Source: Ricordea florida
Lineage: Eukaryota; Cnidaria; Anthozoa; Corallimorpharia; Ricordeidae
Reading direction: 5' to 3'
DNA length: 64,000 nucleotides
Assembly: GCA_949710005.1 (NCBI GenBank)
Contig: OX453285.1
Coordinates: 21,345,503-21,409,502 of the forward strand
Part shown: positions 31,753-56,400 of the stretch, in pieces
Layout: each line of letters starts with the position of its first letter
Position numbering within the stretch: position 1 is the stretch's first letter
Translations under genes and position numbers: made by a program
The notes under the pieces: model-generated
What the model was told of the DNA's origin: nothing
Seen by the model: only the letters and a program-made list of their open reading frames with translations
Databases searched by the model: none

Positions 31753-32285
31753 TGCGTGGTTTCAACTTTTTCATCGGTGTGTGGAACCATGCGGTGCAAC
31801 CACTCTTCGAACTGTGGTTCTATCTTTTTCATCTGTGGATCAAACCATGCAGTGTGACCATTCTTTGTAAAGCTACTGAACAGTACTGTACTGTGGTACT
31901 GTATGTTTTACTATACAGTGTGGTTCTATCTTTTTCATCTGTAGATCAAACCATGCAGTGTGACCATTCCTTGGAAAGCTACTGAACAGTACTGTACTGT
32001 GGTACTGTTTGTTTTACTATACAGTGTGGTTCTATCTTTTTCATCTGTGGATCAAACCATGCAGTGTGACCATTTTTTGTAAAGCTACTGAACAGTACTG
32101 TACTGTGGTACTGTTTGTTTTACTATACAGTGTGGTTCTAACTTTTTCATCTGAGGATCAAACCATGCAGTGTGACCATTCTTTGTAACGCTACTGAACA
32201 GTACTGTACTGTGGTACTTTTGTTTTACTATACTGTGTTGTTCTAACTTTTTCATTCATGAAATAAACCATGCAGTGTGACCAAG
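31753..32285 (+). repeat. 106-bp tandem array A (+), about 5 units
   Basis: Unit contains GATCAAACCATGCAGTGTGA, AAAGCTACTGAACAGTACTG, GTGGTACTGTTTGTTTTACT and ATACAGTGTGGTTCTA. The first unit is the most diverged and the last is truncated. Confidence 0.95.
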
Positions 32286-32412
32286 CTACTTTGATACAGT
32301 GTAGTTTGACTCAGTTTTAAATATTTTTAACGTATAGTGACCGTTAATCTTTTACGAGAAAGGGGGAAACTGGTGGAATTTAGAGGGAGGGGGTGCAGGT
32401 GTAAAACACAGG

Positions 32413-32650
32413 AAAATGGGTAAATCAAACGAGTTGATTAAGTAAGTAATACCTGACCACCGTGAGGTAAAAAGGAGGTGCTGACGTTTCGAGCGTTAGC
32501 CCTTCGTCGGAGCGCTCGAAACGTCAGCACCTCCTTTTTACCTTACGGTGGTATAACTTACTTAATCAACTCGTTTGATTTACCCATTTTCTTGTTTTTC
32601 AACTTCCCACCGACGCAGCACCAGTTTCTTTACAAAATATCCCCACAATA
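32413..32650. mobile_element. Hairpin repeat (GACGTTTCGAGCGTTAG), copy 1
   Basis: Arms GGTAAATCAAACGAGTTGAT and ATCAACTCGTTTGATTTACC enclose GGTGCTGACGTTTCGAGCG and its complement. A tail CACCGACGCAGCACCAGTTT follows. Second copy at 41523-41765. Confidence 0.75.
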
Positions 32651-32919
32651 CAGGTGTAAAAGAACTTCTTTCGAGGGGGGCCATCGCAAAAAATAGGGGG
32701 AAGGGGAGGGGGGGGGGGTGTCACCGGAAATATTTTCGCAATACTTTGAAATGTTTTAACTGGAACTCCATCAATGAAATCGCCGCTCCAACGGGGCAAG
32801 CTGAGGGTCACGCAATTTTTAAACGGTTCTTCCCAAATCACACCGGCACCCCCTCCATCGTAAAAAAATTAACGGTCCCATATAGGTGTTACTTTTTATC
32901 AAACGTGTCTTGTTACTTA

Positions 32920-33216
32920 GGGACGGACCATTAGAAAAGTGATGGGGGGGGGGGGGTGGGGAAAAAAACAAAAAAAAAACTCATGCAAGGGAAAATGCCA
33001 AGAAAAAAAATTCATGCAAGGAAGAAGGTAAAAAAAAAAAAATTCGTGCAGAAGGAAGGTCCAATTGTGACTTTTTCGCACGTAGTAAAAAAAATTCGTG
33101 CAGAGGGGTTCACCTGAAAAAAAATTCCTGCACAAGTAGTGAGCGGAAAAAAAAATTCGTGCAAGCTGAAAATTCCCCACCCCCCCCCCCCCATCACTTT
33201 TCTGATGGTCCGTCCC
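32920..33216. mobile_element. PIF/Harbinger-like MITE with AAAAAATTCATGCA repeats
   Basis: Ends GGGACGGACCATTAGAAAAG and CTTTTCTGATGGTCCGTCCC, flanked by TTA at 32917-32919 and 33217-33219. The interior is several copies of an AAAAAAATTCGTGCA(A/G) motif between G and C runs. Confidence 0.75.
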
Positions 33217-33294
33217 TTAGCTACAGTCCTTAGGAATCTCGTTATTGTGTCTGTTTAACAGTTTCTTAGTAGGATCGTACGTTAGTCTGTGGGC

Positions 33295-34401
33295 TCAATC
33301 TTCGGTGATACTCTTGAAATCCAATGTGACCACCGTCTCACGTGACTTGCTCATCTGGGCTGTGACGCGGTCTTGAAATTTGGACTTAGTCTCCGCGGAG
33401 TCGGGGTGGCAACAGCACAGCACAATCTTGAGCGCCTGGCGGTATTTTGGGATTCTCCACGCGTAGACAAACGGATCCAGCATGAACTTGAGGTAAAGCG
33501 CGTTATCCACCATAAGATTGATAATCAGGACTTTCGGATCGTCGGGATCCAGATCGGTGAATAGCAGAGAAACCCACAGCATTGCCGAGGGCTGGGAGCA
33601 AAGGAACAGGATTAAAATCAACAGGAAGTTGATGACAACAAACTTGCGCTCTACTCGAGTCTGTTTTCCTTCGTTGCTTCGTTCTTGAATGGTGTTCTCC
33701 CCTCGAAGACTCTTTGAAGCTGCCATGCTTTTCTTGAAAGCTATATACAGAAGGATGTAGACAATGATTGTGAGATATATTAAGATAATCGAGTGGAAAA
33801 TGTTGTCAATTTTGTGCAACAGCTCCTCGGGCACGCCCCACAAACGCGACGCGCTGAACAGAATCGTGTAGGCGTAAATGACCAACACGCAGATTATCAC
33901 GCGTCTTTTCGTGACTTTGCGCGCGTAATTCAGTGGTGAAATAACCACGATATACTGCGTGACCGTGAACGCGAACACGATAAAAAACGAAGTGTTCATA
34001 GCCGTCACGGACATTGCCATTCCGATCTGAAATAAATCGACGCAAATGACGACTTTAGGGTCAGCGAAGTACATCATCATGAAACACGACGCGTAAAGCG
34101 GCATCTGAGCGGCGGCGGTTACTATGTCCACGAACGCTAAACCGACGAGAAAATACGTTGTGGCGTTGCGGAACGTCTTGAGCGGATCGATGAAGAAAAC
34201 GACGAGCAGTAATCCGTTGGCAGCGATGGTCACTAACGCAACGACAATCATGTAGATTGCAGAACCGAAAGCATACTTGTAAAACTCGAGAAATGGGTTT
34301 ATCATCGGTGGCACAGTTGATGGAGGAGGTTCGTTGCATAGAGAGCTATTGCCAGTGAAGTTTGCCGTGGTATTGCATATTGGTGGCGTAGAAGCACTCA
34401 T
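33295..34401 (-). CDS. Orphan class A GPCR, GPCR-3
   Basis: A 368-residue single-exon receptor, clearly a paralogue of GPCR-1, -2 and -4 but more diverged. TM1 contains AANGLLLVVFF (Asn 1.50) and TM2 LAFVD (Asp 2.50). TM3 ends FTVTQYIVVISPLNYA (TQY for DRY), TM6 has CSQPS (proline kept), and TM7 is LDPFVYAWRIPKYR. The tail has a CCC cluster after helix 8, a likely palmitoylation site, and ends with ETVVTLDFKS, similar to GPCR-4. The N-terminus has sequons (NTT, NFT, NSS). Possible splice acceptor ACACTGTAG in the leader. Flanked by oppositely oriented 106-bp arrays A and B. Confidence 0.92.
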   Translation of the reverse strand: MSASTPPICNTTANFTGNSSLCNEPPPSTVPPMINPFLEFYKYAFGSAIYMIVVALVTIAANGLLLVVFFIDPLKTFRNATTYFLVGLAFVDIVTAAAQMPLYASCFMMMYFADPKVVICVDLFQIGMAMSVTAMNTSFFIVFAFTVTQYIVVISPLNYARKVTKRRVIICVLVIYAYTILFSASRLWGVPEELLHKIDNIFHSIILIYLTIIVYILLYIAFKKSMAASKSLRGENTIQERSNEGKQTRVERKFVVINFLLILILFLCSQPSAMLWVSLLFTDLDPDDPKVLIINLMVDNALYLKFMLDPFVYAWRIPKYRQALKIVLCCCHPDSAETKSKFQDRVTAQMSKSRETVVTLDFKSITED

Positions 34402-35590
34402 CCTCTTTTCGCTATGTTTCTTTAATTCCTACAGTGTAATACCAGTGAGGAACGTTCTGATGTTTGTTCTGATTTCCGTCAACGCTTATCTTTTTATAGC
34501 CCAGCGGTTACACCAGAGGCAAATTGCTCAATATGACCAGAACAAAAACCAAGTAACGGATGTTAAGATTAAAACTCGGGGAGCGATCGTTAAAGAGAGA
34601 CGGCTCGCTGTGGTGCAATTACTTGTCAAGTCGGTGGTAGCTTCCAAAACCGCAACAATTCAAAAACCAGCTTTGAAGGTGTTTTAATGAAAATCAGTTA
34701 AGTAAATTGTTTATTTAGATATCATTGTCAGATTTAAACGCCTCTGAAACTCAGATTAATTTGTAGCTTAATTTGACTCTTAACGCCCATAATAAAGGTA
34801 AATAGAACTCGTTTCCGCCTATGCCGAGGAAAGGCTGGCAAAAAAGCAAGAACTATTAAACAATACGATCCATTCTGGAAAGGGCGTCAATAGAATATGT
34901 TAATTTACACCGGAGGGGAATTGGAATAAACTTCGCGGCAGGAAAATTCTCCCTCAACAAATCCTTTAATTGATCATATTTTCATGAGTTTCCAGAAAAA
35001 AACGATTTTTTATCTTTAAGAAGTTTTGATAAGTGGGTCGACATTCCTAAGAGGGCATTCGGTCTCCACAGCAACCGTACCAAGTTGATACGGTTCTGCA
35101 AATTTTTTCCTTTTGATTTTCAACGTTCATAATTTAACCAATAATTTAAACATTGGAGCACCCCAGAGAGAAGAAATATTCACGACACGAAGCTTTTGCT
35201 TAATTTTGTTATTTATGAATACCAAGCCTGCCGCGAGTCTTTGGTTTGGAAAACCACGAGAGATTCAATAACTTAATTTCACAGATTGAGTAACTTCCCA
35301 GTTAAGTTATATTCGGCAATGGTCTTCAAATTTAAGAAATTTCATTGCGCGCTGTTTTATCGGGCTGTGAAATCCAAACGAAATCCTTTGCAAAGTTGTG
35401 AAGTTTCCACTTAGCTATATTTCTATTCATGTTTGATTTTTCCCCGACGAGTTCAAAGTAATTAGAAAAATAAAACTAAAATGTTTACAATTATCTTTTT
35501 CAAGGGTACTTTTGCAGACTAAACAAGTAGTGCCACACAGCAGTTTCACGAAGAGAAATCTCGCATGAAAAACTAAAACTCCAAATTTAA
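34402..35590. other. Upstream region of GPCR-3
   Basis: The open frame 34334-34687 (+) is antisense to the GPCR start and its leader; I do not accept it. Nothing else recognised. Confidence 0.5.
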
Positions 35591-35591
35591 A

Positions 35592-36213
35592 CAAAACAAA
35601 CAGTACCACAGTACAGTACTGTTCAGTAGCTTTCCAAAGAATGGTCAAACTGCATGGTTTGATCTACAGATGAAAATTAAAGTTAGCACCACACTGTATA
35701 GTAAAACAAACAGTACCACAGTACAGTACTGTTCAGTAGCTTTCCAAAGAATGGTCAAACTACATGGTTTGATCTACAGATGAAAATTAAAGTTAGCACC
35801 ACACTGTATAGTAAAACAAACAGTACCACAGTACAGTACTGTTCAGTAGCTTTACAAAGAATGGTCACACTGCATGGTTTGATCCACAGATGAAAAAGTT
35901 AGAACCACACTGTATAGTAAAACAAACAGTACCACAGTACAGTACTGTTCAGTAGCTTTACAAAGAATGGTCACACTGCATGGTTTGATCCACAGATGAA
36001 AAAGTTAGAACCACACTGTATAGTAAAACAAACAGTACCACAGTACAGTACTGTTCAGTAGCTTTACAAAGAATGGTCACACTGCATGGTTTGATCCACA
36101 GATGAAAAAGATAGAATCACACTGTATAGTAAAACAAACAGTACCACAGTACAGTACTGTTCAGTAGCTTTACAAAGAATGGTCACACTGCATGGTTTGA
36201 TCCACAGATGAAA
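35592..36213 (-). repeat. 106-bp tandem array B (-), about 6 units
   Basis: Same unit as array A in reverse complement. The first two units differ as a subtype (GATGAAAATTAAAGTTAGCA) from the later ones, showing local unit duplication. Confidence 0.95.
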
Positions 36214-37040
36214 AACACTAAACTAGCTTTCTATTTATATCGAAGTACAGAGCGATTTAGGGGATGTCGGATAGAATGAAATCGTTGAATTAAATTAAAT
36301 TTTTTTATTAACGGGGGAAAGTAAGTTCAAAAATTGGGTAACAGAACAGCTGCACCGCTTTATCGAAACGACGAATCTAATTGAAATAGGGTAGAACTGA
36401 GAAATTTCACTTAAATATGATGAAATGGAAGTTCTGGTTTACTGAGGCTTAAAAGTTTTTCTGTGACTTGGCAGACTCTTGTGTCATTTGTGTTCTGATG
36501 CCTCCGTCATTTTTAAATATTTTTTGTAAAGTTTCTTTTTTCTATCGATTACAATTTGTGCCTTTTAGATACAAAAAGTCATTTAGTAGAGTAGAAGAAG
36601 TTTCCAGTAGAAGGCTTGTAAGAAATTTAACATGTTTTTGTGAAGAAAGTTCGGTAGAGGTTATTTTCGGTATAAACAATGCTAACATGGAACCTTGCCG
36701 AATTCTGTCCTTTCGAATTTTCCTTTTAAACATGTATGTAATAATATACACCTTTTAGCTTTGAAGATTCGGCAAAATCTTTTGTTCAATGCCGTCTTCA
36801 GTTTTCCATGCAAGCTTTTCCACTGTTCAAGGCTAAATCAAAAATAAGGCTCGTCTTGTGAAAGGTGTGTTGAGGATTTATTAGTACCATGCCACAAGCA
36901 TTGAGTAGACATTTTGAAGTGGACTACCACACAACAACTTGTTAAAATCGCTTGTTCTCCATCAAGTTTCAATTAATGATTCAGCTACTTGAGTAAGCAA
37001 AAGGATGGGACTCGAAAGCTGTAAGTATGAAAAATCAAGA
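36214..37040. other. Intergenic, no gene recognised
   Basis: AT-rich DNA. The open frame 36468-36758 has no recognised product. Confidence 0.5.
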
Positions 37041-37043
37041 ATT

Positions 37044-37170
37044 AGGCCCGGTTGAAACATCAAACTTTGCATCTGCCGAATCTAATGCAAATGAGGGAAA
37101 ACAAAAGATTTTTTTCTTATTTGCATTAGGTTCGGTACATGACAAGTTCGACGTTTGAACCGGGCACTAA
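37044..37170. mobile_element. Short MITE with GGCCCGGTTGAAAC ends
   Basis: Arms GGCCCGGTTGAAACATCAAA and GACGTTTGAACCGGGC, with an inner pair around TTTGCAT/ATTTGCATTAGGTTCGG. The left flank is TTA, but the right flank (CTAA) is not an exact match. Confidence 0.6.
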
Positions 37171-39977
37171 TTTTTCCGAGGCCGTAAAGTTTGGCATGGC
37201 AACAGTGTAGAAATATCGACTTTGTAATGAATCTCTAACGTCTGATATTTCGCCACTGACTAAAATTTTAAATAATTCTAAACACAATTTCCTTTACTTT
37301 GCCTATATCATCATTACTTATAATAAGCTTAATTTGCAGAGGAATGTTCAGGCACAACAAAACCGAAACACAATTTATTTCTCAATGCTTTCCTTCTTTT
37401 TTAAGGAATTAATCTCAAGCGAAGCCAGTTGGATGATCAAACCGGGTGCCATAAGAAAAGTGAATTTACTTGAAATATTATATCGGTTTCAGTTTGTTTG
37501 AATAATGTTAGTTCACTAAGGTAAATTAGTATACAGGTGACATTCGTGGTAACCTCAATTGATTTTACAGTTTAAAAACTTCTGACAACGCATTTACTGT
37601 AACAAGTGTCGCTCTCACACAAACATCAGAAGGTTTAGCTTTCCGTGTGTTTTAAACGAAACTTTGCAAAGAATTCAGGAAAAAACGCACAGATAAGCTT
37701 TATCCCACTACCCAAGCTTTCTAAAGGCGAAAAATAAAGTCGTAAATTTTACGTGTTTCTGATGTTTGGAATCGCTACTTATCACTGACACAATTTTGTC
37801 AGCAGGATAAAACCTAATTTAATAAATACGTGTGGTGGAAACTAATTAAAATTGCCGCTGGAGGTTAAATAATTTGCAAAAAAAATGAAACTCATCCTTT
37901 CTAGAACTACACCACGAAAAAAACTTTAAGGAATTAGCTATGGCCAACTGAAAGCATTCTTGTAGGTGCAAAAGTGGAAACTGGTCTATATTTTTGGAGG
38001 ATTTTCGTCGCCCTGGGAGAGAATTTGTTCCTTTATTCCTTTGTCCCCATTAGATAAATTATTTAATTACAACTGGAAATATTATTTACAAAATACATCG
38101 TTTCAATTAATTTTCTTGACGTCTCTGTTAAATTAAATATTTAGTAGATACTTTCATGAGATTGAGAGCCTAGGGAAACATGAAAGGCTCGACAACTAAT
38201 TTGAGCTTTTTCAGGGTGAATAAAAAGGTCCCACTGCGACTCCTGTCCGATGAATTTGAGAGAAAGAGAAAAGCATTCATAGATGTTCCATTTGAAGATA
38301 AATTTTGAATGAAAACTTTCCAACTGTGGCTTTTCTTGCATCAACGAAAGAAACTCATGAAAAGCTAAGCGGGGAAGCGCGTTATTTACCACGCACTTCT
38401 GTGAATCCTAACAGTTCTCGGGTCATAAGTGTAAGAGATGGTCCAAAGTTTTTTGTATAAAAGTATACTTTTGTGGAAAAAAATGTTGGTCTCGTTTCTT
38501 GTTTGTTTTTTGCAAGGCTATGGCTCGCGCTTTTCATTTTGCAAAATTAGAACTTTGTCAAATATCTCAGGTTAAACTTCGGTTTCATTTGATTGAACCA
38601 GCAAACTTGTGATTGAGGAAGATAGATTAGCAAAATTGAACTTAAGCAATATTTTACCACTTCTGTGAATCGTAACAGTTCTGGGTCATAAATGTAAGAG
38701 ATAGGCCCAAGTTTTTTGTATAAAAGTATACTTTTGTCGAAATAAATTTAATCAGTGAAAGTACAGAAAACGTTACGATACGAAAATGTTGCCTTCTCAC
38801 TGACGTTTACTTCAGTCTTAAGAAATACTTAAACATGAAAGTGACAAAGTGAAAAGTGTTATGTATAATTTAAAATTAAAATGTTGTCTGAGAAACAGAA
38901 CGCTATTTGGAAAAACATACTAGCTGTAATTTTACTAACGGCTCAGTAGTCAGTTTATTTTTCCTATTGTTGCAGGCGTTTACGTAAGTTAGCTTCAAGG
39001 AAAAGACTTAAAAACAAAACCCGGCCAAGTAAATTTCATTTCTAGATAAATCTCCGCATTTTTGACGAAGTTCCCAACCACATGCGAAGTATAAGTTTAA
39101 TAAGTGGCTTTCCATGCACCATTTCTTAACCTAATAACTTGGCATTTCACCAGAAGTTTGTGAGCAATTTTGCTTTTGGTTTGCAAGTTTGAACAACTCA
39201 AACGTAACATCTGTTACCATAAAAACGCACCGCTTAATAGAAAATTTCTCAAGTAAGTTCCCTGTGAACTTTTTCGCTCACAATCAAGGTTATCTTCAAG
39301 AACTTGATAACTATGTTGCTTGGGTTTCATTTGCCTTCGATCGTACACGCATTTTCGCGTCTTGGTCCGTTCTTTTCCGCCGACAAAGTTGGACCCCATT
39401 GCTATTTTCCAGCGACGAGGAGGGAAAACAAACCAAAAATATTTCTTTTTTCACAGACTTTCCTTTCTACGGTTTCAGGTGAGTTTTTTCCTCAACGCGA
39501 CTGTTTTTCTATCCTTTTCATGATTCTTGTGATTGCTTCAACCCAACATTGTTGGTAAAAAAATCTCTCATTTAAAATGATTAGGTTTCGAGGGAAGAAA
39601 CATACTTTCTTTGCACCGGAATTCCTAAATGATTGTTCAAGAATAATTTTCTCAGCTCAAGTTTCTTGGCAAAAAATGTTCCCTTCAATTTCCTTTTAAC
39701 GTTTCAACTTTTATTTCTTCATTTAAAATGCAAGCACTTTTTTTCCATAACCGCAATGTTTCTATGACAACGCTTGCTGTTTGTTTAGAAAAAAGGCAAA
39801 AATTACGTTTCGCAGTTTACTTGTTTCGATTTATGTATTAATTTTAAAAACAAATTACCTGCAAAATAAGAAAATGTTGGTATGGAAAGAATTGAACAAG
39901 CCATATCGAAATTTACTTCACAGAAGTACGATGAACGATATTGTCCCCCTTTAAAGAGTTTTTTTTTTATTTCCACG
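37171..39977. other. Intergenic with a short direct repeat
   Basis: A segment of about 80 bp (GTTTTTTGTATAAAAGTATA with its upstream part) occurs at about 38398-38475 and 38660-38745. The stretch TTGGTCTCGTTTCTTGTTTG at 38487-38595 recurs at 41928-42035. An open frame at 39189-39482 ends at a strong donor (TTTCAG|GTGAGT) and could be an unplaced plus-strand exon. Confidence 0.5.
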
Positions 39978-40349
39978 GTCAAACTGCGTGGTTTGAACCA
40001 TAAATAGGAAAGATAGCACTACATTGTGATGTAAAAGAAACAAGGCCACAGTACAGTACTATTCAGTAGCTTTATAGAGAATGATCACACTGCATGGTTT
40101 GATCCACAGATGAAAAAGTTAGAACCACACTGTATAGTAAAACAAACAGTACAACAGTACAGTACTGTTCAGTAGCTTTACAAAGAATGGTCACACTGCA
40201 TGGTTTGATCCACAGATGAAAAAGTTAGAACCACACTGTATAGTAAAACAAACAGTATCACAGTACGGTACTGTTCAGTAGCTCAGTTTACAAAGAATGG
40301 TCACACTGTATGGTTTGATCCACAGATGAAAAAGTTAGAACCACACTTG
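39978..40349 (-). repeat. 106-bp tandem array C (-), about 3.5 units
   Basis: Reverse-complement units of the same family; one has a 4-bp CTCA insertion near 40283. Confidence 0.95.
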
Positions 40350-40485: not shown

Positions 40486-40995
40486 ATTACTATACAGTGT
40501 GGTTCTCCCTTTTTTATCTGTGGATCAAACCATGCGGTGTGATCTATCTCTGAAAAGCTACTGAACAGTACTGTACTGTGGCACTGTTTGTTTTACTATA
40601 CAATGTGGTTCTAACTTTTTCAACTGTGGATCAAACCATGCGGTGTGATCATTCTTTGAAAAGCTACTGAACAGTACTGTACTGTGGCACTGTTTGTTTT
40701 ACTATACAATGTGGTTCTAACTTTTTCAACTGTGGATCAAACCATGCGGTGTGATCATTCTTTGAAAAGCTACTGAACAGTACTGTACTGTGGCACTGTT
40801 TGTTTTACTATACAGCGTGGTTCTATCTTTTTCATCTGTGGATCAAACCATGCAGTGTGACCATTCTTTGTAAAGCTACTGAACAGTACTGTACTGTGGT
40901 ACTGTTTGTTTTACTATACAGTGTGGTTCTATCTTTTTCATTTGTCGATCAAACCATGCAGTGTGACCATTCTTTGGAAAGCTACTGAACAGTAT
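40486..40995 (+). repeat. 106-bp tandem array D (+), about 4.7 units
   Basis: Same family. The first units form a subtype (CATGCGGTGTGATCATTC, GGCACTGTTTG) distinct from the later CATGCAGTGTGACC type. With array C it forms an inverted pair about 136 bp apart. Confidence 0.95.
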
Positions 40996-41522
40996 TGCAA
41001 TCTGTTGGATAAACTTTAAATAACCTTTTCTAAAATAAAACAATTCGAAGACCCATTCAAAACTCTGAAGAAGGAAGATAGATCTGCGGGAAAAAACACC
41101 CACTTTCAGTGCAATATAAAGTGTGAGTGAATCAAAATTACAACTTTATGGGAGCGTCCGACTTGTTCTGAACTGTAACGTATCCAGTAATTTTTTGTTT
41201 TAATAACTTTTTCAATATTGCAGTTTATTATAATGCTTTTCAGTTCCGAGGCGTAAAAGAGAATTCTGATTGGTTGCCTGACAGGTCCGATATTTTCCTA
41301 CATTGACATTGATGATAAATTTCTAACCAGTTTATTTTAATTAACTAGACTGTCTCGTATTCTCCAGATTCGTTGGTTTCTATTTACATTCTTCAAACAG
41401 AAACAAAATCACGGTATTACAGTCCTAGCTCTGTCAGTTAATTAGAAGGCGCACAAAACGTCTTCACGAAAAGTTACAGAAGAGTTATATAACGATAAAC
41501 GCTGTATCGGAAGTACAAGAAA
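40996..41522. other. Intergenic, no gene recognised
   Basis: Nothing recognised beyond a GAATTCTGATTGGTTGCC CCAAT-type motif near 41260. Confidence 0.45.
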
Positions 41523-41765
41523 TTGGGTAAATCAAACGAATTGATTAAGTAAGTTATACCACCATAAGGTAAAAGAGAGGTGCTGACGTTTCAAGCGTTA
41601 GTCATTCGTCGGAGGGAAGGGCTAACGCTCGAAACGTCGGCACCTTCTTTTTACCTTATGGCGGTATCATAACTTGCTTAATCAATTCGTTTGGTTTACC
41701 CAATTTCTTGTGTTTCAATTCCCCACCGACGCAGCACCAGTTTCTTTAGAAACTATCCACACAAT
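41523..41765. mobile_element. Hairpin repeat (GACGTTTCGAGCGTTAG), copy 2
   Basis: Same plan and tail as 32413-32650. A degenerate third copy may be present at about 42800-42900 (GCTTATCCTTCGTCATTCCC). Confidence 0.75.
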
Positions 41766-41924: not shown

Positions 41925-43700
41925 AATGTTGGTCTCGTTTCTTGTTTGTTTTTTGCAAGGAAATGGCTCGCGCTTTTCATTTTGCAAAATTAGAATTTGG
42001 TTAAATATCTCAGGTTAAACTTCTCAGTTTCATTTGATCAATCTTGTGATTGAGGAAGATAGATTAACAAAAATTCAGTGAACTTAAGCAATATTTTGCA
42101 ATAAAATCTGGAAATTTGGGTAAAATTAACCCTAACACTTCGGTTCAAATTTTGTGTTGAACGTGCAAGGTCGTAATTGAGGACAAAAAAATTAACAAAA
42201 TTGAAATTTAGGAATATTTTACCCGTATGGACCTTTTGATCGTTCAAATTTATCTATATTTCCCTTGTAATTACCTCACGTCAGTTCAGTAAAGTCTGTA
42301 TATTCGGAAAAACGGTTTTATCTTTAATTGAACTTGCAAAGTCGTAATTACGGACGATAAATAAAGAAGACAGACCTTGACTAAAACTCTGCCCGTACTG
42401 ACGAAGCTCACGTTAGTTAAATAACAGCGATATACTTTGGTAAAAATATACGGTTAAACTTCGGCTTATTTTTAAATTGAACTTGTAGCTTACTTAAATT
42501 CGGGATGCAACAGAATGAAATGGGCTCGCCGACAATATTAAAAACACTAAAGAAATTGATAGTTTTAAGCGGACACTTTTTAATAGTATGTTTCATGCGA
42601 AATGATTTTGGATATATTTTTATACTTTCGAATATATTTAAAATTTAATTATTTGAAAAAAGGTTTCTTTATTGTTAACATTGTGACTCAAAAGCCGTGT
42701 TGAAGGGAGTCTAAATAAGTATGTATCTTTGTAAAGGTGTAATTAACACACAAGATTAACAAAATTGAACTTGACCAATATTTTTCCACTACGAATTTTA
42801 CGTTAAAGGAATTCGTTCCAAAGATATTGGTGTTGCGTCTTTTCGAGGGCTTATCCTTCGTCATTCCCTCTGATGAAGGGCAAACGCTTGAGCTTGCTTT
42901 ATTGTGTAAAACTACCAGAGTCGTATACCGAGTGGTATCAAATTGATAAATATGATATCACACGTGTGGGTATCCGCATATATGAGTGATATCACTGGCA
43001 GGGTAGCGTTTCTAGCGATTTATACCACTAAATTTTATATAACAAAAAGAAAATTGCATTGTCGCTTGGAGATACGAAAATTCCTCTTCTCATGTTGGAA
43101 AATATTTCAACCCGGTTTGATAAACCACCTTTTATGAATCTCACGTCAGTTCAGTAACATGTTTATATTTTGGTAAAAGTATTCAGATACACTTCACTTT
43201 AATTTTGAATTGAGCTTGCAATGTTGTTTCTCTGTAATGCCACGTAATATCCTGTATTTATCAACCCGTTTGATAAAAATCTTTTAATGAATCTCACATC
43301 ACTTCAGTAACATCTTTATATTTTGGTAAAAATATACAGATGCACTTCACTTTAATTTTGAATTGAGCTTGCAATGTTGTTTCTCTGTAATGCCATGCAA
43401 TATCCTGTATTTATCAACCCGTTTGATAAAAATTCTTTTTATGAATCTCACGTCAGTTCAGTAACATCTTTATATTTTGGTAAAAATATCCAGATGCACT
43501 TCACTTTAATTTTGAATTGAGCTTGCAACGTTGTTTCTCTGTATGGGCATGTAATATCCTGTATTTATCAACCCGTTTGATAAAACATTTTTTTTTATGA
43601 ATCTCGCGTCAGTTCAGTATTGGACTTCCATCTAGAGACACTTCACTTTAGTTTTGAATTGAGCTTGCAATGTTGTAATTAAGGACGACCAATTAAGATA
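41925..43700. repeat. Old tandem repeat region, about 155-bp units
   Basis: GAATCTCACGTCAGTTCAGT recurs at about 43135, 43293, 43443 and 43598 with TTTGAATTGAGCTTGCAA between. Weaker related units precede it (for example near 42280). No gene recognised. Confidence 0.75.
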
Positions 43701-44880: not shown

Positions 44881-44933
44881 GGTGCCAGTACTAACACAGT
44901 CAACAAGAGAGTTTAATTTCTTTGGCTTCAAGA

Positions 44934-46040
44934 ATGAACGCATCCATTGACTGTTACAGTTCAGCAAACCTGACTTCAAACTCGTCTGCGTTTGACGGTT
45001 CTTGTGGCCCTCCATTGCCACTCGAAAATCCTTTCGCGGACTTTGCAAAGTGGGCGTTTGGGTCAGCCATTTACATCAGCATCGTGTCCTTCATCAGCGT
45101 CATTGCCAACAGCTTGCTGCTCCTTGTCTTCTTCATCGATCCATTCAAGACTTTCAGCAACCCAACCTCCTACTTTCTCATTGGCTTGGCAATCGGTGAT
45201 TTGCTGACAGCGGTCGTCCAAGAACCGATCTTCGCCGCTTGCTTCATGATGCTGTACTTGCAGGGTCCCCTAAAAGGTCTCGAGCTTTGCGAGAAATCGT
45301 TGCTAAATGTGGCGCACGTTCAATCCGCCATAACGATGACCGCCAGTTTTCTTATTATTTTGTTCTTCACTTTTACTCAGCTAACCGTGGTTGCGTCTCC
45401 ACTTAAGCACGCCCGAAAGGTGACCACAAAACGTGTATGCGCATGTGTAATATTCGTTTACATATATTCAATTCTCTACTGGGTTTCCAAGTATTGGGGC
45501 GTCCCAGAACAGTACCTATACAAAATTGATGTCTTCCTTAATAGTCTTTCCGGGGCAATCATCTCTGTCATATTCTATATTGTTCTATACTGCATGTTTC
45601 GACGAAAAATGAGCTCTTCCGCGGCGCTTTCAGGTGAAAGCCGCATGCAGAGAGCAGACACCAAGGCCAAGCACAACCGAGTGCAACGGAAGTTCATCGT
45701 TGTAAACTTTCTCCTCCTCGCAATTCTTCTGGTTTGTTCTTTGCCTTCAGCTCTGTTTTGGCTCGCTAAGGAGTTTTGGTATCTCAAGTTCACCCCAAAG
45801 TTGCTGATCGCTAATTTAATGATTGATAATTTGCTTTATCTAAAATTCATGTTGGATCCGTTTGTTTACGCTTGGCGCATACCAAAATACCGACAGGCTC
45901 TCGCCACCATTTGTCCAATTCTCAAAAAGTTGAAGTTAAAACGCAAGTCACCATACGAGGCTTCCCTGGAGACCACAATGTCCGTCGGTCAGTCGAAAGA
46001 AACAGTGATCACTCTAGACATGCGAAAATTTGAAGAATAA
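44934..46040 (+). CDS. Orphan class A GPCR, GPCR-4
   Basis: Single coding exon, 368 residues from the ATG at 44934 (372 if the in-frame ATG at 44922 is used). The later one is preferred because it gives an MNAS start like the paralogues' MNTS. TM2 has LAIGDLLTAVVQEP. TM3 ends FTFTQLTVVASPLKHA, so DRY is TQL, more diverged than TQY. TM6 has CSLPS and TM7 LDPFVYAWRIPKYR. A two-residue-longer loop precedes TM3 (GPLKGLELCEK). The tail ends ETVITLDMRKFEE, related to GPCR-3. Ligand unknown. Confidence 0.92.
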   Translation: MNASIDCYSSANLTSNSSAFDGSCGPPLPLENPFADFAKWAFGSAIYISIVSFISVIANSLLLLVFFIDPFKTFSNPTSYFLIGLAIGDLLTAVVQEPIFAACFMMLYLQGPLKGLELCEKSLLNVAHVQSAITMTASFLIILFFTFTQLTVVASPLKHARKVTTKRVCACVIFVYIYSILYWVSKYWGVPEQYLYKIDVFLNSLSGAIISVIFYIVLYCMFRRKMSSSAALSGESRMQRADTKAKHNRVQRKFIVVNFLLLAILLVCSLPSALFWLAKEFWYLKFTPKLLIANLMIDNLLYLKFMLDPFVYAWRIPKYRQALATICPILKKLKLKRKSPYEASLETTMSVGQSKETVITLDMRKFEE

Positions 46041-46960: not shown

Positions 46961-46964
46961 TCAA

Positions 46965-47930
46965 CGGTGGTTCTAACGTTTTCATCTGTGGATCAAACCA
47001 TGCAGTGTGACCATTCTTTGTAAAGCTACTGAACAGTACTGTACTGTGGTACTGTTTGTTTTACTATACAGTGTGGTTCTAACTTTTTCATCTGTGGATC
47101 AAACCATGCAGTGTGACCATTCTATGTAAAGCTACTGAACAGTACTGTACTGTGGTACTGTTTGTTTTACTATACAGTGTGGTTCTAACTTTTTCATCTG
47201 TGGATCAAACCATGCAGTGTGACCATTCTTTGTAAAGCTACTGAACAGTACTGTACTGTGGTACTGTTTGGTTTACTGTACAGTGTGGTTCTATCTTTTT
47301 CATCTGTGGATCAAACCATGCAGTGTGACCATTCTTTGTAAAGCTACTGAACAGTACTGTACTGTGGTACTGTTTGTTTTACTATACAGTGTGGTTCTAA
47401 CTTTTTCATCTGTGGATCAAACCATGCAGTGTGACCATTCTTTGTAAAGCTACTGAACAGTACTGTACTGTGGTACTGTTTGTTTTACTATACAGTGTGG
47501 TTCTATCTTTTTCATCTGTGGATCAAACCATGCAGTGTGAACATTCTTTGTAAAGCTACTGAACATTACTGTACTGTGGTACTGTTTGTTTTACTATACA
47601 CTGTGGTTCTAACTTTTTCATCTGTGGATCAAACCATGCAGTGTGACCATTCTTTGTAAAGCTACTGAACAGTACTGTACTGTGGTACTGTTTGTTTTAC
47701 TATACAGTGTGGTTCTATCTTTTTCATCTGTGGATCAAACCATGCAGTGTGACCATTCTTTGTAAAGCTACTGAACAGTACTGTACTGTGGTACTGTTTG
47801 TTTTACTATACAGTGTGGTTCTAACGTTTTCATCTGTGGATCAAACCATGCAGTGTGACCATTCTTTGTAAAGCTACTGAACAGTACTGTACTGTCGTAC
47901 TGTTTGTCCTACCATAGAGTGTGGTTACAA
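46965..47930 (+). repeat. 106-bp tandem array E (+), about 9 units
   Basis: The longest and most homogeneous array of the family. Units alternate mainly in TTCTAAC/TTCTATC before TTTTTCAT. Confidence 0.96.
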
Positions 47931-48557
47931 TAATCTGCAATGATTGAAAGGAAATGGGAAAGAAAAGGACCAGTCACGCGGATTCAAAACAGATCTATTT
48001 ATTGCTTCTTCGTTCATAAGTTATAATAATCTTACACCAAAATATTCTTTCACTATTTTTTCAACTTCGTTTGTACTAGAGCTAGTGTGATTGAAACCTA
48101 CGATGCACACCACTAAAACTAACAAGGAACAAACAGAATCTGAACTAAGCTATCACTCCTCCTAATTAAACTGTGAACAATTGTTACCATGTCGGTGGGG
48201 AGATTATGGTATCACATCAACAGTACGAAGTTCCATACAATTTTTTACCATGCTTGAGTGGAAAATTATTTTACATCGAAAAACGTTCTTGGCTAATTTT
48301 CTTCGTACCATTTTAGTGTGGGAATTTCAACGTTATATCAAGTTAAGGCCAGTTTAGAATTACGTTACTTATACCTCACAGAGATAAGCGAAGTCGAAGT
48401 CGAGGAAAAACAAAACCCAAAAAGTTTAAAGTATTCCACTGAAGCCTGTCTCTATTACTTTGTGATGAGCTAAGCGAATTCGATATTGATAAGGCATGTT
48501 CAATTTTTTCAGTTGTGAGAACGCCTTTACTTTATTTTATTGTGAGTGGAAATTACC
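47931..48557. other. Intergenic, no gene recognised
   Basis: I see nothing supportable. Confidence 0.5.
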
Positions 48558-48695
48558 GGATCAACACCAGTTTCTGGGCAACCGTGCACCTACCCCTCCC
48601 CTAAACTAACATTAACGCTAACTTTTTAACTCATTATAACTTGTTGGATTAGGGGAGGGGTAGGTGCACAGTTGCCCAGATACTGACATTGATCC
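48558..48695. mobile_element. hAT-like palindromic MITE, copy 2
   Basis: Ends GGATCAACACCAG and CTGACATTGATCC, arms GTGCACCTACCCCTCCCCTA and its complement. An exact 8-bp duplication AAATTACC lies at 48550-48557 and 48696-48703. Confidence 0.85.
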
Positions 48696-49329
48696 AAATT
48701 ACCTTAGCATGTGTTATGCAACCCAGTAAGGTTATTTGGAGAATTTGTCATTAGATCAGCTTGAATCAGCCGGAATGCCGATTAATGCCGGGTTACCTTG
48801 GCGAGGCCAGGCGCTAGCGTTCCCCAGGTTACAAAATCAGTGAAAGAAAAAATGGAGAGAACAAAAACAGAACGAAATCAGATTCCCAGAATGACGAAGC
48901 GTTCTTCAAGACAATGAAAGTTTTCTCACAGCTACAGTCGACAACTGTGCCTCTACAGTCACCAATTTATTAACGATTTCATATTTACAGCACAATTACA
49001 AATTCGACCTTTGATTCTCAATTTTGAAAAAACTAAATGATTCCGTTCACTTTCAGTACAAACCTACGGAGCGTGCCTAACCCTCCCCACCCTAACGACA
49101 AATTGTACCATGTAGGTTTTCTTTGGAATTATAATGAAGGTTGGACATTGCCCCCCCCCCTTTTTCCTTCAATTGAAAATAAAAAATTGTCTCATTTGAA
49201 AACGATCTGTACCAAGAAACAATCTCCCGCACCCCACCCCTAAAAGTGTCCTTTTGGAAAGCGACTTGTACCCCATCACACCAATGTAAGTAACTTATTT
49301 GAAATTTGAAAGCACCCTGTTTTAAGCCA

Positions 49330-49470
49330 CTAACCCCACGGTCCAACCCCACGGTCCAACCCCACGGTCCAACCCCACGGTCCAATCCCATGGTCCAACC
49401 CCACGGTCCAACCCCACGGTCCAACCCCAAGGTCCAATCCCACGGTCCAATCCCACGGTCCAACCCCACC
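49330..49470. repeat. 13-bp minisatellite in srGAP 3' region
   Basis: About eleven copies of CGGTCCAACCCCA, about 70 bp past the srGAP stop codon and so probably within its 3' UTR. Open frames in all directions are repeat artefacts. Confidence 0.95.
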
Positions 49471-49534
49471 CTCCTTTTTGAGTCTGTACCCCTGCCCCAA
49501 ACAAACCCAAACCCCAACGGTCATTTCTTGTGTT

Positions 49535-50499
49535 CTAAAACGACGTTTCGTCACCAACCGAGCCCCTGCTCTTTCTGGGTTCGTCCCCACTCGAACTCCC
49601 CCTGTTACTTCGCACAGCCTGAGCCGCTTGTAGAGTCGCTAGAAGATCATCGGAATTCTTGCGGAAAGGGGCGGTAGGACCACGATTGCCCTTTGGTTTG
49701 GGAAGAACTGCTGGGGGAACTTTGGTTACGGATGTCGCTCGCGGGCTTCCTGGAGGAGTCTGCGGTGCAGGTGAACTTGTCTCTCTCTGTTGCCAGACTA
49801 CTTCATTTGACTTCCGGTTTCCCTCTTTGATCACACTTGTGGCTCCTTTCTGGTCTTTCTCTGGTGATTCATTCTTTATTTCTCCCTTATCCTCCTCTTC
49901 CGGTTTCTCCTGGTTTGTGGTCAGTGATTTTCGCGTAGGCGAAGTACTGCGCAGCCGTGGAATGTTAAACGGTGGATCTTTATCTTTATCCGGGGTTTTA
50001 GCTCCCGAGTCCTGATCATCTTTGGACTTGCGCAGAAGTGTCAACTGGCGCTTGACGATTTCCTCTGACGAAATGGCCGGTCCCACTGTTCTTTTAAACG
50101 TAGACGCACTCATCGAGGAAGCGTGGGGACTAGTTGCTGTGGGGCTGGCAATTTCCGCCACTGGGGATGGAGCATCATCTCGTCCTTTGAGAGAACCCTC
50201 TCGCTTTGGAATCCTCGGAGGCACGTTGAAGTCCTTCGGCCTTTCGGCCGACTTCGGCGACGGTTCACCGCCAATGGACAAGTTTCCTTCGCCATCAGTC
50301 ATTTCCGAATCGTTTTCATCGGTCTGTGTTCGGATGTACGTCGCGGGCACGAATCCATCAACACCGTTAAATGTACCGTCCCACCAATCAGCATTGAACC
50401 TCCGAAACACGTGAATGATATCGCCTTTTTTGAAGGAGAGCTCTTTCGACGAACGCGCAGAGTAGTCAAAAAGCGCTTCGGCATCTCGGGGTTCGAAGT
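49535..50499 (-). CDS. srGAP terminal exon: SH3 and Pro/Ser-rich tail
   Basis: 965 nt ending in a stop; acceptor TGTCTTTCAG|AC. Encodes [51 protein letters not shown], then about 260 residues of low-complexity tail with several PPxxP-type stretches ([17 protein letters not shown]) that could bind SH3 domains. Confidence 0.93.
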
Positions 50500-53400
50500 C
50501 TGAAAGACATTACAGAACTGAATCACAACTAAGCAGGTACGGTACTGCTTCTCTACAAAAGATGATGCAAACACGGGTAGTGGGCCAATCAAACCGCGCG
50601 TTATATTGATTTTATACCGATTTCGAAAGCAAAGATTCCTTTTCCCGAACACGTCTTGGTCACGCTCGGTAAAATGAGATGCTCTGGGGGAAGAACGTCA
50701 CACACGAAAAATAGGGATAAGTAATAAGGGTTAACACACAACTGAGCTGTTTTCTGATTATCTACAGTTTACGTTTCCCACTTCATTGTTTTTTACCTTC
50801 CTCACTATCGCTTTCCTCCGTCTCAGAGATTGCTGAATCCAGGGAATCCCCACCTCCAGGGAACACTTCATCAGAGTGTTTGATCATGAGTTCTACCATG
50901 CCGTTCACTTGACTCTGATAGGCGATCATGTCCTGCTCTGATGGGATGCGAAGCAGCGTTGGACCAAATACCACAGCAAGATTGTGCGCATCCATCTTGT
51001 TTTTATCGCTGTGTTCTGCGACCCTATAAGGAATAAAGAATCAAATTAACATTTTAATGATGAATGCACAACCACACAAAACCGTCTTAGAAAAATGTTT
51101 AGTCCATAAATAAAAGAAAACAAACACACAAAAAAAATCATCATCATCATCTTATTCGCGGGTTAATAATGGTCACACATCATGCGTTTGCCCACCGATG
51201 GAAACGTCAGAGCCACACTGTATAGTAAAATCAAAGTAGGACTATGGTGAACTCGTGGATATGTTTACAAAACAGAGAAAAAAGAAATAATTTAAAAATT
51301 ACCGAGGTGTTTTTTCAGAGTTGTGATTGAATGAACTTGAAGATAATTTTAATAATCTATAATCACAACATAAAAGTGACCAGGGAGCTGAGTAGCTTTT
51401 TGAAATAAACATACAGTGAGTACATGACGCCAATCATTTGACTACACTAGGCATCAGTTATAAGGCAGGTGGCAAGCATACAGTTGTTAAAAAATTTGAT
51501 AACTTAACATAAGGGTACAGGATTAAATGGCACCGAAACCAAATGTAGTTCTGGTATCCTGCTGCTCACTGTCTGTGTGTTCAAAGTAACAGGGTCCTTC
51601 TGAATAAGGTCTGAATTTTGTTGCCATGACATTGTCAATTTTATCATCATTATAGTTTTTGTTGTCTACAAGTCTATTCAATGTATTCAACAGAAATATC
51701 CACCTTGATTCTGCAGCTGATAATGAACAAAACCATGTAGGATAGCCCAGCTGACGAATCATACCAAACAAGTCTTTCTTGCATTTTTGCAAAGTATGTT
51801 AGTGATGATCTTAAAATCCTTAAGACTCTCAATCCTTTATCAAGTTGAATTACTTTATTTACATTACCATCTCATTTTAGGTTATCAGTGGTATATATAT
51901 TCAGAGTTGCACTTAAAAAAAAATCACACTTGCCATCATTAATACAGCAATACATATTTGTTTTTATCCTTATAACTTCTTGTTTTTACAATGTAAATGA
52001 GTCACACAACAGTAAGCAAAACAGGTAAGCCTATTTTTCCAACATGTCTACTTCAACACAATCTAGTTCACTTCAAGGTAAATTCGGAAATCAATAGACA
52101 GAAAACTTTTCATTGTAACGGCTTGTGGTGTATTGTATATAATATAACGCTTAATACATTTTCTACATGACTTACTGTTTTCGAACCCTTTAATGACTTT
52201 CTTACATTGTAACCTTCGTGGTTCTCCGTCACGGCAGCCGCCTCCATATTTACAAGTAAATGCTGACATACTTCTTGGCCGTCCCAATACTTCTACAACT
52301 CCATTCCTGTTAGTACTAACACTTAAATCAGTAGAAAAGTCCTACATGCGATGTTTCTTATCCAGGTTGGCCACAGAAGTTCTTCGGTTTCACATCATGG
52401 ATTCGTCAATTTATAGTAGTTTCGTTCAATAACGAGTACTCATTTCGCTCATATAAGTTCTCATTCAAGTGCTAATTTCGCTCTATGAGTTCTCACCAAA
52501 GCTTACTACATTAGCAAGAGATTTTCTCATCTTCAGATCACTTTCGAGCCAACTGAAATTCATATACTGCTTGTAATCTTGGGGGCGGTCGATGGCGGTC
52601 GATGTCGGAAAAGCGAATAGTTATCATCTGTTCACGTTTAGCGCCTGGCCGAGTAAAAGGCTCATGAAATTCAGTCTCCAAGTTGGTCATTGTCCTAACT
52701 GGAAACATTTAAACTCCTTTTGATTTTAGTAAGACCGCTAATGAGGCCCTATTAGTGAGGTTGTTTATGTCGCGCGTCTGAGTTTCAAACCTTTTCACGT
52801 CGCAATTTCGGAAGGTCGAAGGTCGCTGTCGTAATTTCCCGTGAGCGGCTCGTCGTTCGTCGCCATTTCAGGTCCTTTATGTCGCCGTTTCAAGGCCATG
52901 TTGCTTGTCGAAATTTACCCCTAACAGGGCCTCGCTAATCGTCCTCTTAAGCTACAAAATCATTACAAACTCTGGCAACGGTACGATACACTTTCAGCGT
53001 GAACTTTCATCAACAGACTTCCGTGACTTCGGTCACGAGAATTGTCGTCTTCATATCGGTGCCCCCGAGTTCTATCCGACTAATTACGAAGTGTGTCTAC
53101 ACTGGAGTGAGTGAGTGAGTGAGTGAGTGAGCGAGTGAGTGAGTGAGTGAGTGAGTAAGTGAGTGACAATTTGCATATCGGAGTCCCCACAAAAACTCGC
53201 AAATACGCTTCGCGTATCCACGAGTTAAAAAAGTACCACAGTACAGTACTGTTCAGTAGCTTTACAAAGAATGGTCGCACTGCATGGTTTGATCCACAGA
53301 TGAAAAAGTTAGAACCACACTGCATAGTAAAAAAAAGTACCACAGTACAGTACTGTTCAGTAGCTTTACAAAGAATGGTCTCACTGCATGGTCTGATCCA

Positions 53401-56400
53401 CAGATGAAAAAGTTAGAACCACACTGTATAGTAAAACAAACAGTACCACAGTACAGTACTGTTCAGTAGCTTTACAAACAATGGTCACACTGTATGGTTT
53501 GATCCACAGATGAAAATGTTAGAACCACAGTGTATAGTAAAACAAACAGTACCACAGCACAGTACTGTTCAGTAGCTTTACAAAGAATGGTCACACTGTA
53601 TGGTTTGATCCACAGATGAAAATGTTAGAACCACACTGTATAGTAAAACAAACAGTACCACAGTACAGTACTGTTCAGTAGCTTTACAAAGAATGGTCAC
53701 ACTGTATGGTTTGATCCACAGATGAAAATGTTAGAACCACAGTGTATAGTAAGACAAGATTACATCAATCGCAGTCATACTTACAATGTGAGAAAAGAAA
53801 AGAGGTACTTCATAACTTTTACTACAGATTCGGGAACCAAACTGAGTGCACCGGAAACTTCCTTTATGCCATCCTCCAATGACGTAGCCACTGTTAACAG
53901 AAAAAGAGACTGAGCATCACCAACCAGCACCCCCTCCCTAAGAATTCATTTTACAGATCACGCACCCACCCTTCCCTAAAAACAACTGCTATGGAGTTAC
54001 CTTCCTTCTGTGAAATTTTAATCTCTTTACCCATTCATACTTTATCTATCTATTCATTTGTGTATTACTTAACCATACAAAAAGGAACTTACTGCTAGCC
54101 TTGATAAACGCTTGATAACATGAGCTTGGATAAAGAGAATCTTCCAACTCTCGGAAGTAAACTCTCATTAATCCTGCTACGGCGTTAATATCTTTCCAGT
54201 GATTGAGGCCAGCTAAAGGATCACGACCTACGAGAAAAGAACTCAGGCCATAATGTGATATGCACTGATGCAGGGTTGGGCAGTGTGGAAAAGTGTAGGC
54301 TTTTGTAGTGTAGTAAGTGCAGTGTAGTGCAGTGCAATGTAGTGCAGTGTAGTGTAGTGCAATGTAGTGTAGTAAAGTGTAGTGCAGTGCAATTTAGTAC
54401 AGTGTAGTGCGGTGCAGTGTAGTGCACAGTAAGGCAGTGTAGTGCACAGTAAGGCAGTGTAGTGCACAGTAGTGCAGTGTAGTGTAGCGTACTGTAGTGT
54501 AGTGTAGTGTAGTGTGCTGCAGTGTAGTGTAGTATAGTGTGGTGCAGTGGAGTGTAGTGTAGTGTGGCGTAGTGTAGTGCAGTGTAGTGCAGTGGAGTGT
54601 AGTGTGCTGCAGTGCAGGGTAGTGTAGTATAGTGTGGGGCAGTGAAGTGTAGTGCAGTGTAGTGTAGTGCAGTGTAGTGTAGTGCAGAGTAGTGTAGTGT
54701 GCTGCAGTGTAGTGAAGTGTAGTGTAGTATAGTGTGAAGCAGTGCAGTGTAGTGTAGTGTAGTGTAGTGCAGTGTAGTGTAGTGCAGTGTAGTGTAGTGC
54801 AGAGTAGTGTAGTGTGCTGCAGTGTAGTGAAGTGTAGTATAGTATAGTGTGAAGCAGTGCAGTGTAGTGTAGTGTAGTGCAGAGTAGTGCAGTGTAGTGT
54901 AGTGCAGAGTAGTGTAGTGTAGTGTGCAGCAGTGTAGTGTAGTATAGTGTGGTGCAGTGTAGTGTAGTATAGTGTGGTGCAGGGTAGTGTAGTATAGTGT
55001 GCTGCAGTGTGGTGCAGTAGAGTGTGCTGCAGTGTAGTGTAGTGTGCTGCAGTGTAGTGCAGCATAGTGTGGTGCCGTGTAGTGTAGTGGGATGCAGTGT
55101 AGTGCAGTATAGTGTGCTGCAGAGTAGTGTATTTTTCTGCAGTCTAGTGCAGTGTAGTGTAGTGCAGTGTAGTGTAGTGTAGTGCAGTGTGGTAGAGTAG
55201 TGTGGTGCAGTGTACTGTAGTGTGGTGCAGTGTATTGCAGTATAGTGTAGTGAAGTGTAGTGTAGTGCAGAGTAGTGCAGTGTAGTGCAGAGTAGTGCAG
55301 TGTAGTGTAGTGTGCTGCAGTGTAGTGTAGTATAGTGTGCTGTAGTGTAGTGTAGTGCAGTGTAGTGCAGAGTAGTGCCGTGTAGTGTAGTGTGCTGCAG
55401 TGTAGTGCAGTATAGTGTAGTGCAGTGTAGTAAAGTGTGGTACAGTGTAGTATAGTGTGGTGCAGTGTAGAGTAGTGCAGAGTAGTGCCGTGTAGTGTAG
55501 TGTGCTGCAGTGTAGTGTACGATAGTGTGGTGCAGGGCAGTGTAGTGCAGTGTAGTGTAGTATAGTGTGCTGCAGTGTAGTGTGGTGCAGAGTAGTGCAG
55601 TGTAGTGAAGTGTAATGTAATGAAGTGTAGTGTAGTGTAGTAAAGTGTAGTGCAGTGTAGTATAGTGTGGTGTAGTGTAGTGTAGTGTGCTGCAGTTTTA
55701 GTGTAGTATATTGTGGTGCAGTGCAGTGTAGTGTAGTGTGCTGCAGTGTAGTGCAGTATAGTGTGGTGCAGGGTAGTGTAGTGTAGTGTGCTGCAGTGTA
55801 GTGCAGTATAGTGTGGTGCAGTGTAGTGTAGTGTGCTGCAGTGTAGTGCAGTATAGTGTAGTGTAGTATAGTGTGGTGTCGTGCAGTGTAGTGTAGTGTG
55901 CTGCAGTGTAGTGTAGTATAGTGTGGTACAGTGTAGTGTAGTATAGTGTAGTGCAGTGTAGTGTAGTGTAATGTGCTGCAGTGTAGTGTAGGATAGTGTG
56001 GTGCAGGGTAGTGTAGTGTGCTGCAGTGTAGTGTAGTATAGTGTGGTGCAGTGTAGTGTAGTGTAGTGTGCTGCAGTGTAGTGTAGTATAGTGTGGTGCA
56101 GTGCAGTGTAGTGTGCTGGAGTGTAGTGTAGTATAGTGTGCTGCAGCGTAGTGTAGTGTGGTGCAGTGAAGTGTAGTATAGTGTGGTGCAGTGTAGTGTA
56201 GTGTAATGTGCTGCAGTGTAGTGTAGTATAGTGTGGTGCAGTGTAGTGCAGTATAGTGTGGTGCAGTGTAGTGCAGTATAGTGTGCTGCAGTGTAGTGTA
56301 GTATAGTGTGGTGCAGTGTAGTGTAGTATAGCGTGGTGCAGTGCAGTGTAGTATAGTGTGCTGCAGTGTAGTGCAGTATAGTGTGGTGCAGGGTAGTGTA

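What the first reader, a model, noticed from the sequence alone, without database searches (positions are those of the whole stretch)
31753..53758. One 106-bp tandem repeat forms six arrays in both orientations, only across the GPCR-srGAP half
Arrays at 31753-32285 (+), 35592-36213 (-), 39978-40349 (-), 40486-40995 (+), 46965-47930 (+) and 53227-53758 (-), plus a stray unit at 51172, share one monomer. None occurs in the first 31 kb. Each array has its own subtypes, so units spread between loci and then duplicated locally. Every monomer carries an 8-bp stem (AACAGTAC/GTACTGTT) around a 9-nt loop. Arrays A and B flank GPCR-3 in inverted orientation; C and D form an inverted pair 136 bp apart. 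A transposing or recombination-driven minisatellite is the simplest reading.
Basis: partly seen in the sequence, partly recalled or inferred. Interest (0 to 1): 0.7.

Follow-up and report, generated by a model that had tools for sequence, protein, structure and literature searches.

The report
Scattered coral-type satellite DNA arrays
A 106-base repeat occurs as short tandem arrays scattered through this animal genome in tens of thousands of copies; it is an ordinary kind of dispersed satellite DNA for which no transposon carrier was found, and the apparent lone copy is the end of one array cut in two by a jumping element.

Summary
The six arrays are real and at the stated places, but not special to this window. 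The 106-bp monomer is an abundant dispersed satellite of a 537.8-Mb genome (from recalled mitochondrial features probably a hexacoral): one 24-mer of it occurs 22,505 times at up to 2 mismatches, reversed control 0; the exact 106-mer 555 times. I found no transposon carrying it: among 77 array segments the ends fall at almost any monomer phase, lengths are not whole multiples, and no common flank, target-site duplication or clear target motif appeared. Array interiors are more homogeneous than edges. Best reading: a euchromatic satellite, homogenised locally by unequal exchange and seeded now and then at new sites by repair-type insertion; the seeding is inferred. The 'stray unit' is explained: a 1,998-bp non-coding Helentron-like element (51230-53227), with 40 long copies elsewhere among 40 scored candidates, jumped into array 53228-53757 and split it. 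The stem folds no better than shuffles. Loci with intact units lie mostly towards contig ends, unlike Helitron Rep genes. New member of a known kind.

The parts
31753..32285 (+). Array A: degenerate half unit 31756-31807, then about 4.5 units
35593..36215 (-). Array B, 5.8 units, two of them identical to the monomer used as reference
39977..40347 (-). Array C, 3.5 units, degenerate edge unit
40487..40997 (+). Array D, 4.8 units, on average the furthest from the other window arrays
46967..47926 (+). Array E, 9.1 units, two of them identical to the monomer used as reference
53228..53757 (-). Array F, larger piece, 5 units, ends at monomer phase 92
51165..51229 (-). Array F, cut-off piece (the 'stray unit'), resumes at monomer phase 90
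   Evidence: the alignment runs to 51235, six letters into the element
51230..53227 (-). 1,998-bp non-coding Helentron-like (HINE-like) element inserted in array F; not part of the satellite

Best explanation
A dispersed satellite DNA family of the euchromatic kind. Shown: a 106-bp monomer in short head-to-tail arrays in both orientations at very many loci, with ends at almost any phase, no carrier flanks in the sample, and interiors more alike than edges. Inferred: arrays grow, shrink and homogenise in place by unequal exchange or replication slippage, and new loci are seeded when satellite DNA (for example circles released from arrays) is joined into breaks by end-joining or repair synthesis. 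It would need no transposase of its own. Other mobile elements (a Helentron-like element here; MITE-like and tRNA-SINE-like repeats elsewhere) jump into the arrays and split them.
For: 22,505 and 21,816 matches of two separate 24-mers of the monomer, controls 0: two parts of the monomer have like copy number, so the whole monomer is the unit. Exact 106-mer 555 times; the places shown run from contig C1 to C7, where the list was cut: recent spread or exchange between loci. Of 83 array segments, 77 have both ends inside the piece: start phase uniform (Rayleigh p 0.62), length modulo 106 uniform (p 0.26). TSD-like repeats of 6 bp or more: 0 of 77 (0.6 expected by shuffling); of 5 or more: 2 (2.4 expected); no strong base preference to the eye at the ends, not tested formally. 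No 9-mer shared by more than 3 of the 77 left or right flanks; control maximum 3.3 on average. Terminal units diverge more than internal ones (0.061 against 0.049, 45 arrays, p 0.005). The 21 arrays under 3% divergence also show varied end phases, by inspection.
Against: No empty site of a satellite insertion was found (17 of 77 junctions searched), so the seeding step is not shown. End phases lean: Rayleigh p 0.023, p 0.0498 with one segment per piece; 29 of 77 ends fall in the hairpin (18 expected, p 0.007), starts do not (19 of 77, p 0.79), and scan tests are not significant. Whole-circle insertion would predict lengths in whole multiples of 106, which is not seen. The two flank searches scored only the 40 best candidates each. 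The sample is not random.
Confidence: 0.62

Rival explanations
1. The arrays are the central repeats of a non-autonomous Helitron or Helentron (as Cg_HINE in the oyster) and spread with it.
For: Helitron Rep genes are plentiful here (150 of 150 scored candidates above cut-off, 428 candidates in all), a Helentron-like element abuts array F, and its 31 loci on contigs of known length lean to contig ends like the satellite (0.37, p 0.017).
Against: That element lies inside the array and splits one monomer between phases 92 and 90; in short pieces of three other copies (L091-L093) the best match to the monomer is 12 of 13 letters, E 0.09. 77 array segments share no common left or right flank, whereas arrays of the oyster clusters share 50-100 bp flanks (PMC7492417). 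Rep genes lie towards contig centres, loci with intact satellite units towards ends.
Confidence: 0.08
2. Old vertically inherited arrays with no recent movement: loci are ancient and kept alike by gene conversion between arrays.
For: Degenerate units at edges and debris nearby; arrays of the C1 sample differ by 8% from consensus on average; only modest difference within and between arrays.
Against: 555 units identical over 106 bp and 21 sampled arrays under 3% divergence; long-distance conversion among very many loci would have to be efficient.
Confidence: 0.22
3. A retrozyme: tandem repeats with a hammerhead ribozyme, spread through circular RNA.
For: Retrozymes form short tandem arrays in the coral Acropora millepora (PMC7229834, passages).
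Against: No ribozyme family among the 21 Rfam matches at E up to 10 in 31000-54300; the monomer has no CTGANGA core on either strand; 106 bp is below the 150-450 bp given in that paper.
Confidence: 0.03
4. A centromere or heterochromatin satellite with some escaped arrays.
For: An array of 14.6 kb exists (C11).
Against: Loci with an exact unit lie towards contig ends (mean relative distance 0.32, 46 loci, p 4e-6). Large collapsed arrays cannot be excluded, and centromeres were not mapped.
Confidence: 0.05

Closest known systems
Dispersed euchromatic satellites: TCAST1-like elements of Tribolium (PMC3411249, PMC5844308) and 1.688 of Drosophila (PMC7642928); search listings with abstract starts only
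   Same: Tandem arrays of a satellite partly dispersed in euchromatin near genes
   Different: Sequences were not compared; TCAST1 also forms large pericentromeric blocks, which I did not find here (assembly limits apply)
Scattered satellites of the oyster Crassostrea gigas (PMC8268682, passages; PMC7492417, abstract and first part of Results)
   Same: Very many short arrays across the genome (there 0.85% of the assembly for 13 clusters; here very roughly 0.44%)
   Different: The 13 oyster clusters of PMC7492417 sit in Helentron-type elements with shared flanks; no shared flanks were found here
DINE-1 / HINE Helentrons (PMC4067079, passages): closest to the 1,998-bp inserted element, not to the satellite
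   Same: 12-bp subterminal inverted repeats, inverted repeat beside the 5' one, microsatellite, T-rich target without duplication, no coding
   Different: Weak 3' palindrome; 3' repeat about 20 bp from the end (38-60 in the mite HINEs of that paper); autonomous partner with the same ends not sought

Membership tests
Dispersed euchromatic satellite DNA | Head-to-tail monomers at many loci in both orientations | tested here: met
Dispersed euchromatic satellite DNA | Concerted evolution (units within an array more alike) | tested here: met
   0.064 within, 0.086 between; modest
Dispersed euchromatic satellite DNA | Arrays among genes, outside centromeric blocks | tested here: inconclusive
   Window arrays A-E lie around GPCR reading frames; contig-end bias; centromeres and chromatin not mapped
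Dispersed euchromatic satellite DNA | Extrachromosomal circles of the monomer (if the circle route is right) | not testable with these tools
   needs circle sequencing or 2D gels
Cg_HINE-type Helentron with central repeats | Conserved left and right flanks next to arrays | tested here: not met
   none common to the 77 sampled segments
TIR transposon / MITE | Fixed ends and target-site duplication | tested here: not met
   variable phases; 0 of 77 duplications of 6 bp or more (short duplications such as TA could not be excluded)
Retrozyme | Hammerhead ribozyme in each monomer | tested here: not met
Helentron/HINE (the 1,998-bp element only) | Subterminal inverted repeats and inverted repeat at the 5' end | tested here: met
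   12-bp repeat near one end, its complement in the last 60 bp; hairpin at that first end -19 kcal/mol (RNA parameters)
Helentron/HINE (the 1,998-bp element only) | Insertion in T-rich target without duplication | tested here: met
   a neighbouring unit has a run of 8 T; here 6 T before and 4 T after the element, consistent with 8 plus one T at each element end
Helentron/HINE (the 1,998-bp element only) | Palindrome near the 3' end | tested here: inconclusive
   weak fold, -0.8 kcal/mol
Helentron/HINE (the 1,998-bp element only) | Autonomous partner with the same ends | not tested
   Rep genes exist; their ends were not read

The most novel reading that the evidence does not exclude
The satellite colonises chromosome arms as an element in its own right: circles or fragments of satellite DNA are inserted at breaks in open chromatin without any transposon ends, giving very many arrays at arbitrary phases, while the Helitron-rich contig centres stay nearly free of intact units.
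Probability: 0.35. Interest if true: 0.55.

Novelty: new member of a known kind. Interest (0 to 1): 0.3.

Why it matters
How satellites reach new euchromatic sites without a transposon is an open question. This family has very many small arrays, some with intact units, in a contiguous assembly, so presence/absence comparison between individuals would give empty sites directly. For annotators it is a repeat to mask, and a reminder that a lone unit can be the severed end of an array.

Tried and rejected
Carrier transposon: flank against flank, k-mers, duplications, target bases, negative. One search's apparent peak of end phases at positions 1 and 106 was an artefact of linearising the query; redone with wraparound alignment. 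One search compared flanks without masking satellite remnants (543 pairs, output cut); redone masked (91 rows within 60 bp of an end; I read out the sequence behind some of them, and the rest I judged from the table as other repeats or local duplications at differing distances). Inserts of about 317 and 372 bp inside two other copies of the Helentron-like element, close to 3 and 3.5 units in length, were read in the hope of an empty site: they do not match the monomer at E 0.001. Joined flanks of six window segments (arrays B to F and the stray piece; array A was dropped because its flank holds satellite remnants) and of eleven C1 arrays were searched genome-wide, 17 of the 49 junctions that passed the filter out of 77: no satellite empty site. 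In one search two left flanks (L020, L033) matched other places at 79-100% over 31 to 87 letters, none passing the junction by more than a letter. Ribozyme: negative. Viral contigs: no exact match of one 24-mer. Species: the mitochondrial contig has COX1 in two pieces and the order ND4L-ND3-ATP8-COX1-COX3-COX2 (genes other than COX1 named by eye), which from memory suggests a hexacoral; not settled. No 106-bp coral satellite appeared in the listings, nor in the passages seen of one coral cytogenetics paper (PMC9005458); that does not show that none is in print.

Full report
The window lies in an unnamed 537.8-Mb genome in 48 contigs (C14:21345503-21409502). All six arrays are there with a period of 106 bp, and BLAST of a single monomer finds nothing before 31756.

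The repeat is genome-wide. One 24-mer of the monomer has 10,870 forward and 11,635 reverse matches at up to two mismatches, control 0; a second 24-mer from another part of the monomer has 10,602 and 11,214, control 0. At 106 bp each, 22,505 units are about 2.4 Mb, 0.44% of the assembly; this is rough, since units with more mismatches are missed and not every match need be a whole unit. On the first 8.27 Mb of C1 there are 55 arrays with an exact match to either 24-mer (6.7 per Mb; at most 3 in 22 kb), so the window is a dense local cluster of a common repeat. 15 of 54 gaps there are under 25 kb against 8.3 expected, so arrays cluster mildly.

I cut arrays out of 64 genome pieces (L041 and L042 joined, as they are contiguous) and the window by wraparound alignment: 83 array segments, 77 with both ends inside the piece. 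The sample is not random: 30 pieces are best matches to array A and 34 come from the first 5.2 Mb of C1; some segments belong to one locus. Start phases are uniform (Rayleigh p 0.62), end phases lean (p 0.023), and length modulo 106 is uniform (p 0.26). 29 of 77 ends, but only 19 of 77 starts, lie in the hairpin (18 expected); scan tests are not significant. With one segment per piece and all seven window segments, 65 in all, start p is 0.43 and end p 0.0498, with 23 ends in the hairpin (15 expected). I take this as at most a weak preference for breakage at the palindrome.

No carrier was found. After masking satellite sequence, the flanks share no common neighbour; matches near array ends are to other repeats at varying distances or local duplications. 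There is no target-site duplication of 6 bp or more in 77 segments (0.6 expected), no strong base preference at the junction by eye, and no enriched 9-mer in the flanks. This differs from the oyster, where 50-100 bp flanks are shared by arrays of one cluster (PMC7492417, abstract and first part of Results).

Local turnover is visible. Units within arrays differ by 0.064 on average, between arrays by 0.086 (468 of 780 units used, at most 12 per array). Window arrays are no closer to each other than to the well-matching arrays elsewhere, so proximity brings little kinship. Terminal units are more diverged than internal ones (45 arrays, p 0.005). In L067 another repeat inside the array recurs with it at 982-bp spacing. 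L076 and L077, about 1.4 kb apart on C1, share parts of both flanks, one of them in the opposite sense, but hold about 4.6 and 2 units. Exchange or spread between loci is also recent, since 555 units are identical over all 106 bp, among them four in the window.

The stray unit is explained. A search with joined flanks showed that the sequence on one side of array F and on one side of the stray unit is repetitive, and that at ten listed places the two lie next to each other. A search with the whole interval gave 41 rows of about 1.9-2.0 kb or more, 40 of them elsewhere at 95-99% identity and most of them full length; 40 of 2,979 candidates were scored. The element runs from 53227 down to 51230 on the minus strand, 1,998 bp, longest open stretch 94 codons, with a 12-bp subterminal inverted repeat, a strong hairpin at one end, a CACT microsatellite beside it, and insertion within a run of T. 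Head-to-tail junctions with the same sequence were read at C10 and C16 (L091, L092). These are marks of Helentron-related elements (PMC4067079, passages). Array F stops at monomer phase 92 and resumes at phase 90 beyond the element, and a neighbouring unit of array F shows an uninterrupted T run. So the element jumped into the satellite; it does not carry it. One further copy, on C2, also has satellite beside it, but the query held satellite, which favours such copies.

Rfam gives no ribozyme among 21 weak matches in 31000-54300.

Position along contigs: merged loci with an exact unit on C1 and C3-C6 (46 loci; C2 dropped for unknown length, C7 for a cut list) lie nearer contig ends than chance (mean relative distance 0.32, p 4e-6), as do 27 merged loci of best-matching arrays over the genome (0.36, p 5e-4), while 92 merged Helitron Rep loci lie towards centres (0.62, p 3e-5). 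The 1,998-bp element also leans to ends (31 loci, 0.37, p 0.017), so the contrast is with Rep genes, not with every mobile element. That contigs are whole chromosomes is assumed; positions were copied by hand; intact units are only part of the family; places on contigs of unknown length were dropped.

Mechanism: the data show tandem arrays, local homogenisation and absence of carrier marks in the sample. That new loci are seeded by satellite fragments or circles joined into breaks is inference, at about even odds; long-range gene conversion among old loci is the main rival.

Noticed in passing
51230-53227: 1,998-bp Helentron-like non-coding element with 40 long copies at 95-99% identity among 40 scored candidates, and head-to-tail junctions elsewhere in the genome.
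   Followed up: yes
L067 1084-3507: A repeat with GGCCGGTTG-type ends sits inside a satellite array and recurs with it at 982-bp spacing.
   Followed up: partly
32404-32645 and 41515-41761: Fold-back MITE-like repeat, a family that also abuts satellite arrays in L069 and L072.
   Followed up: partly
37048-37163; 48557-48696: Inverted repeats that weakly trigger microRNA models; probably fold-back elements.
   Followed up: no
5271 (+); 30507, 22975, 22742 (-): A loose hammerhead-core pattern matches at these four places, all outside the arrays; not tested further.
   Followed up: no
54304-60109: 5.8-kb array of a GTAGT-rich 25/50-bp repeat.
   Followed up: no
43107-43619: 154-bp tandem repeat, 3.3 copies, between arrays D and E.
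   Followed up: no
12884-14068; 29069-30205; 33295-34401; 44922-46040: Four GPCR-like single reading frames; the last three match 7tm_1, the first was judged by eye and not scanned.
   Followed up: partly
G000:C48 (L089, L090): Mitochondrial contig with COX1 in two pieces about 1.1 kb apart and gene order ND4L-ND3-ATP8-COX1-COX3-COX2, genes other than COX1 named by eye.
   Followed up: partly
L057 2404-2720: An array end passes into a CAGTA microsatellite resembling the palindromic core, next to a tRNA-SINE-like repeat named by eye.
   Followed up: no
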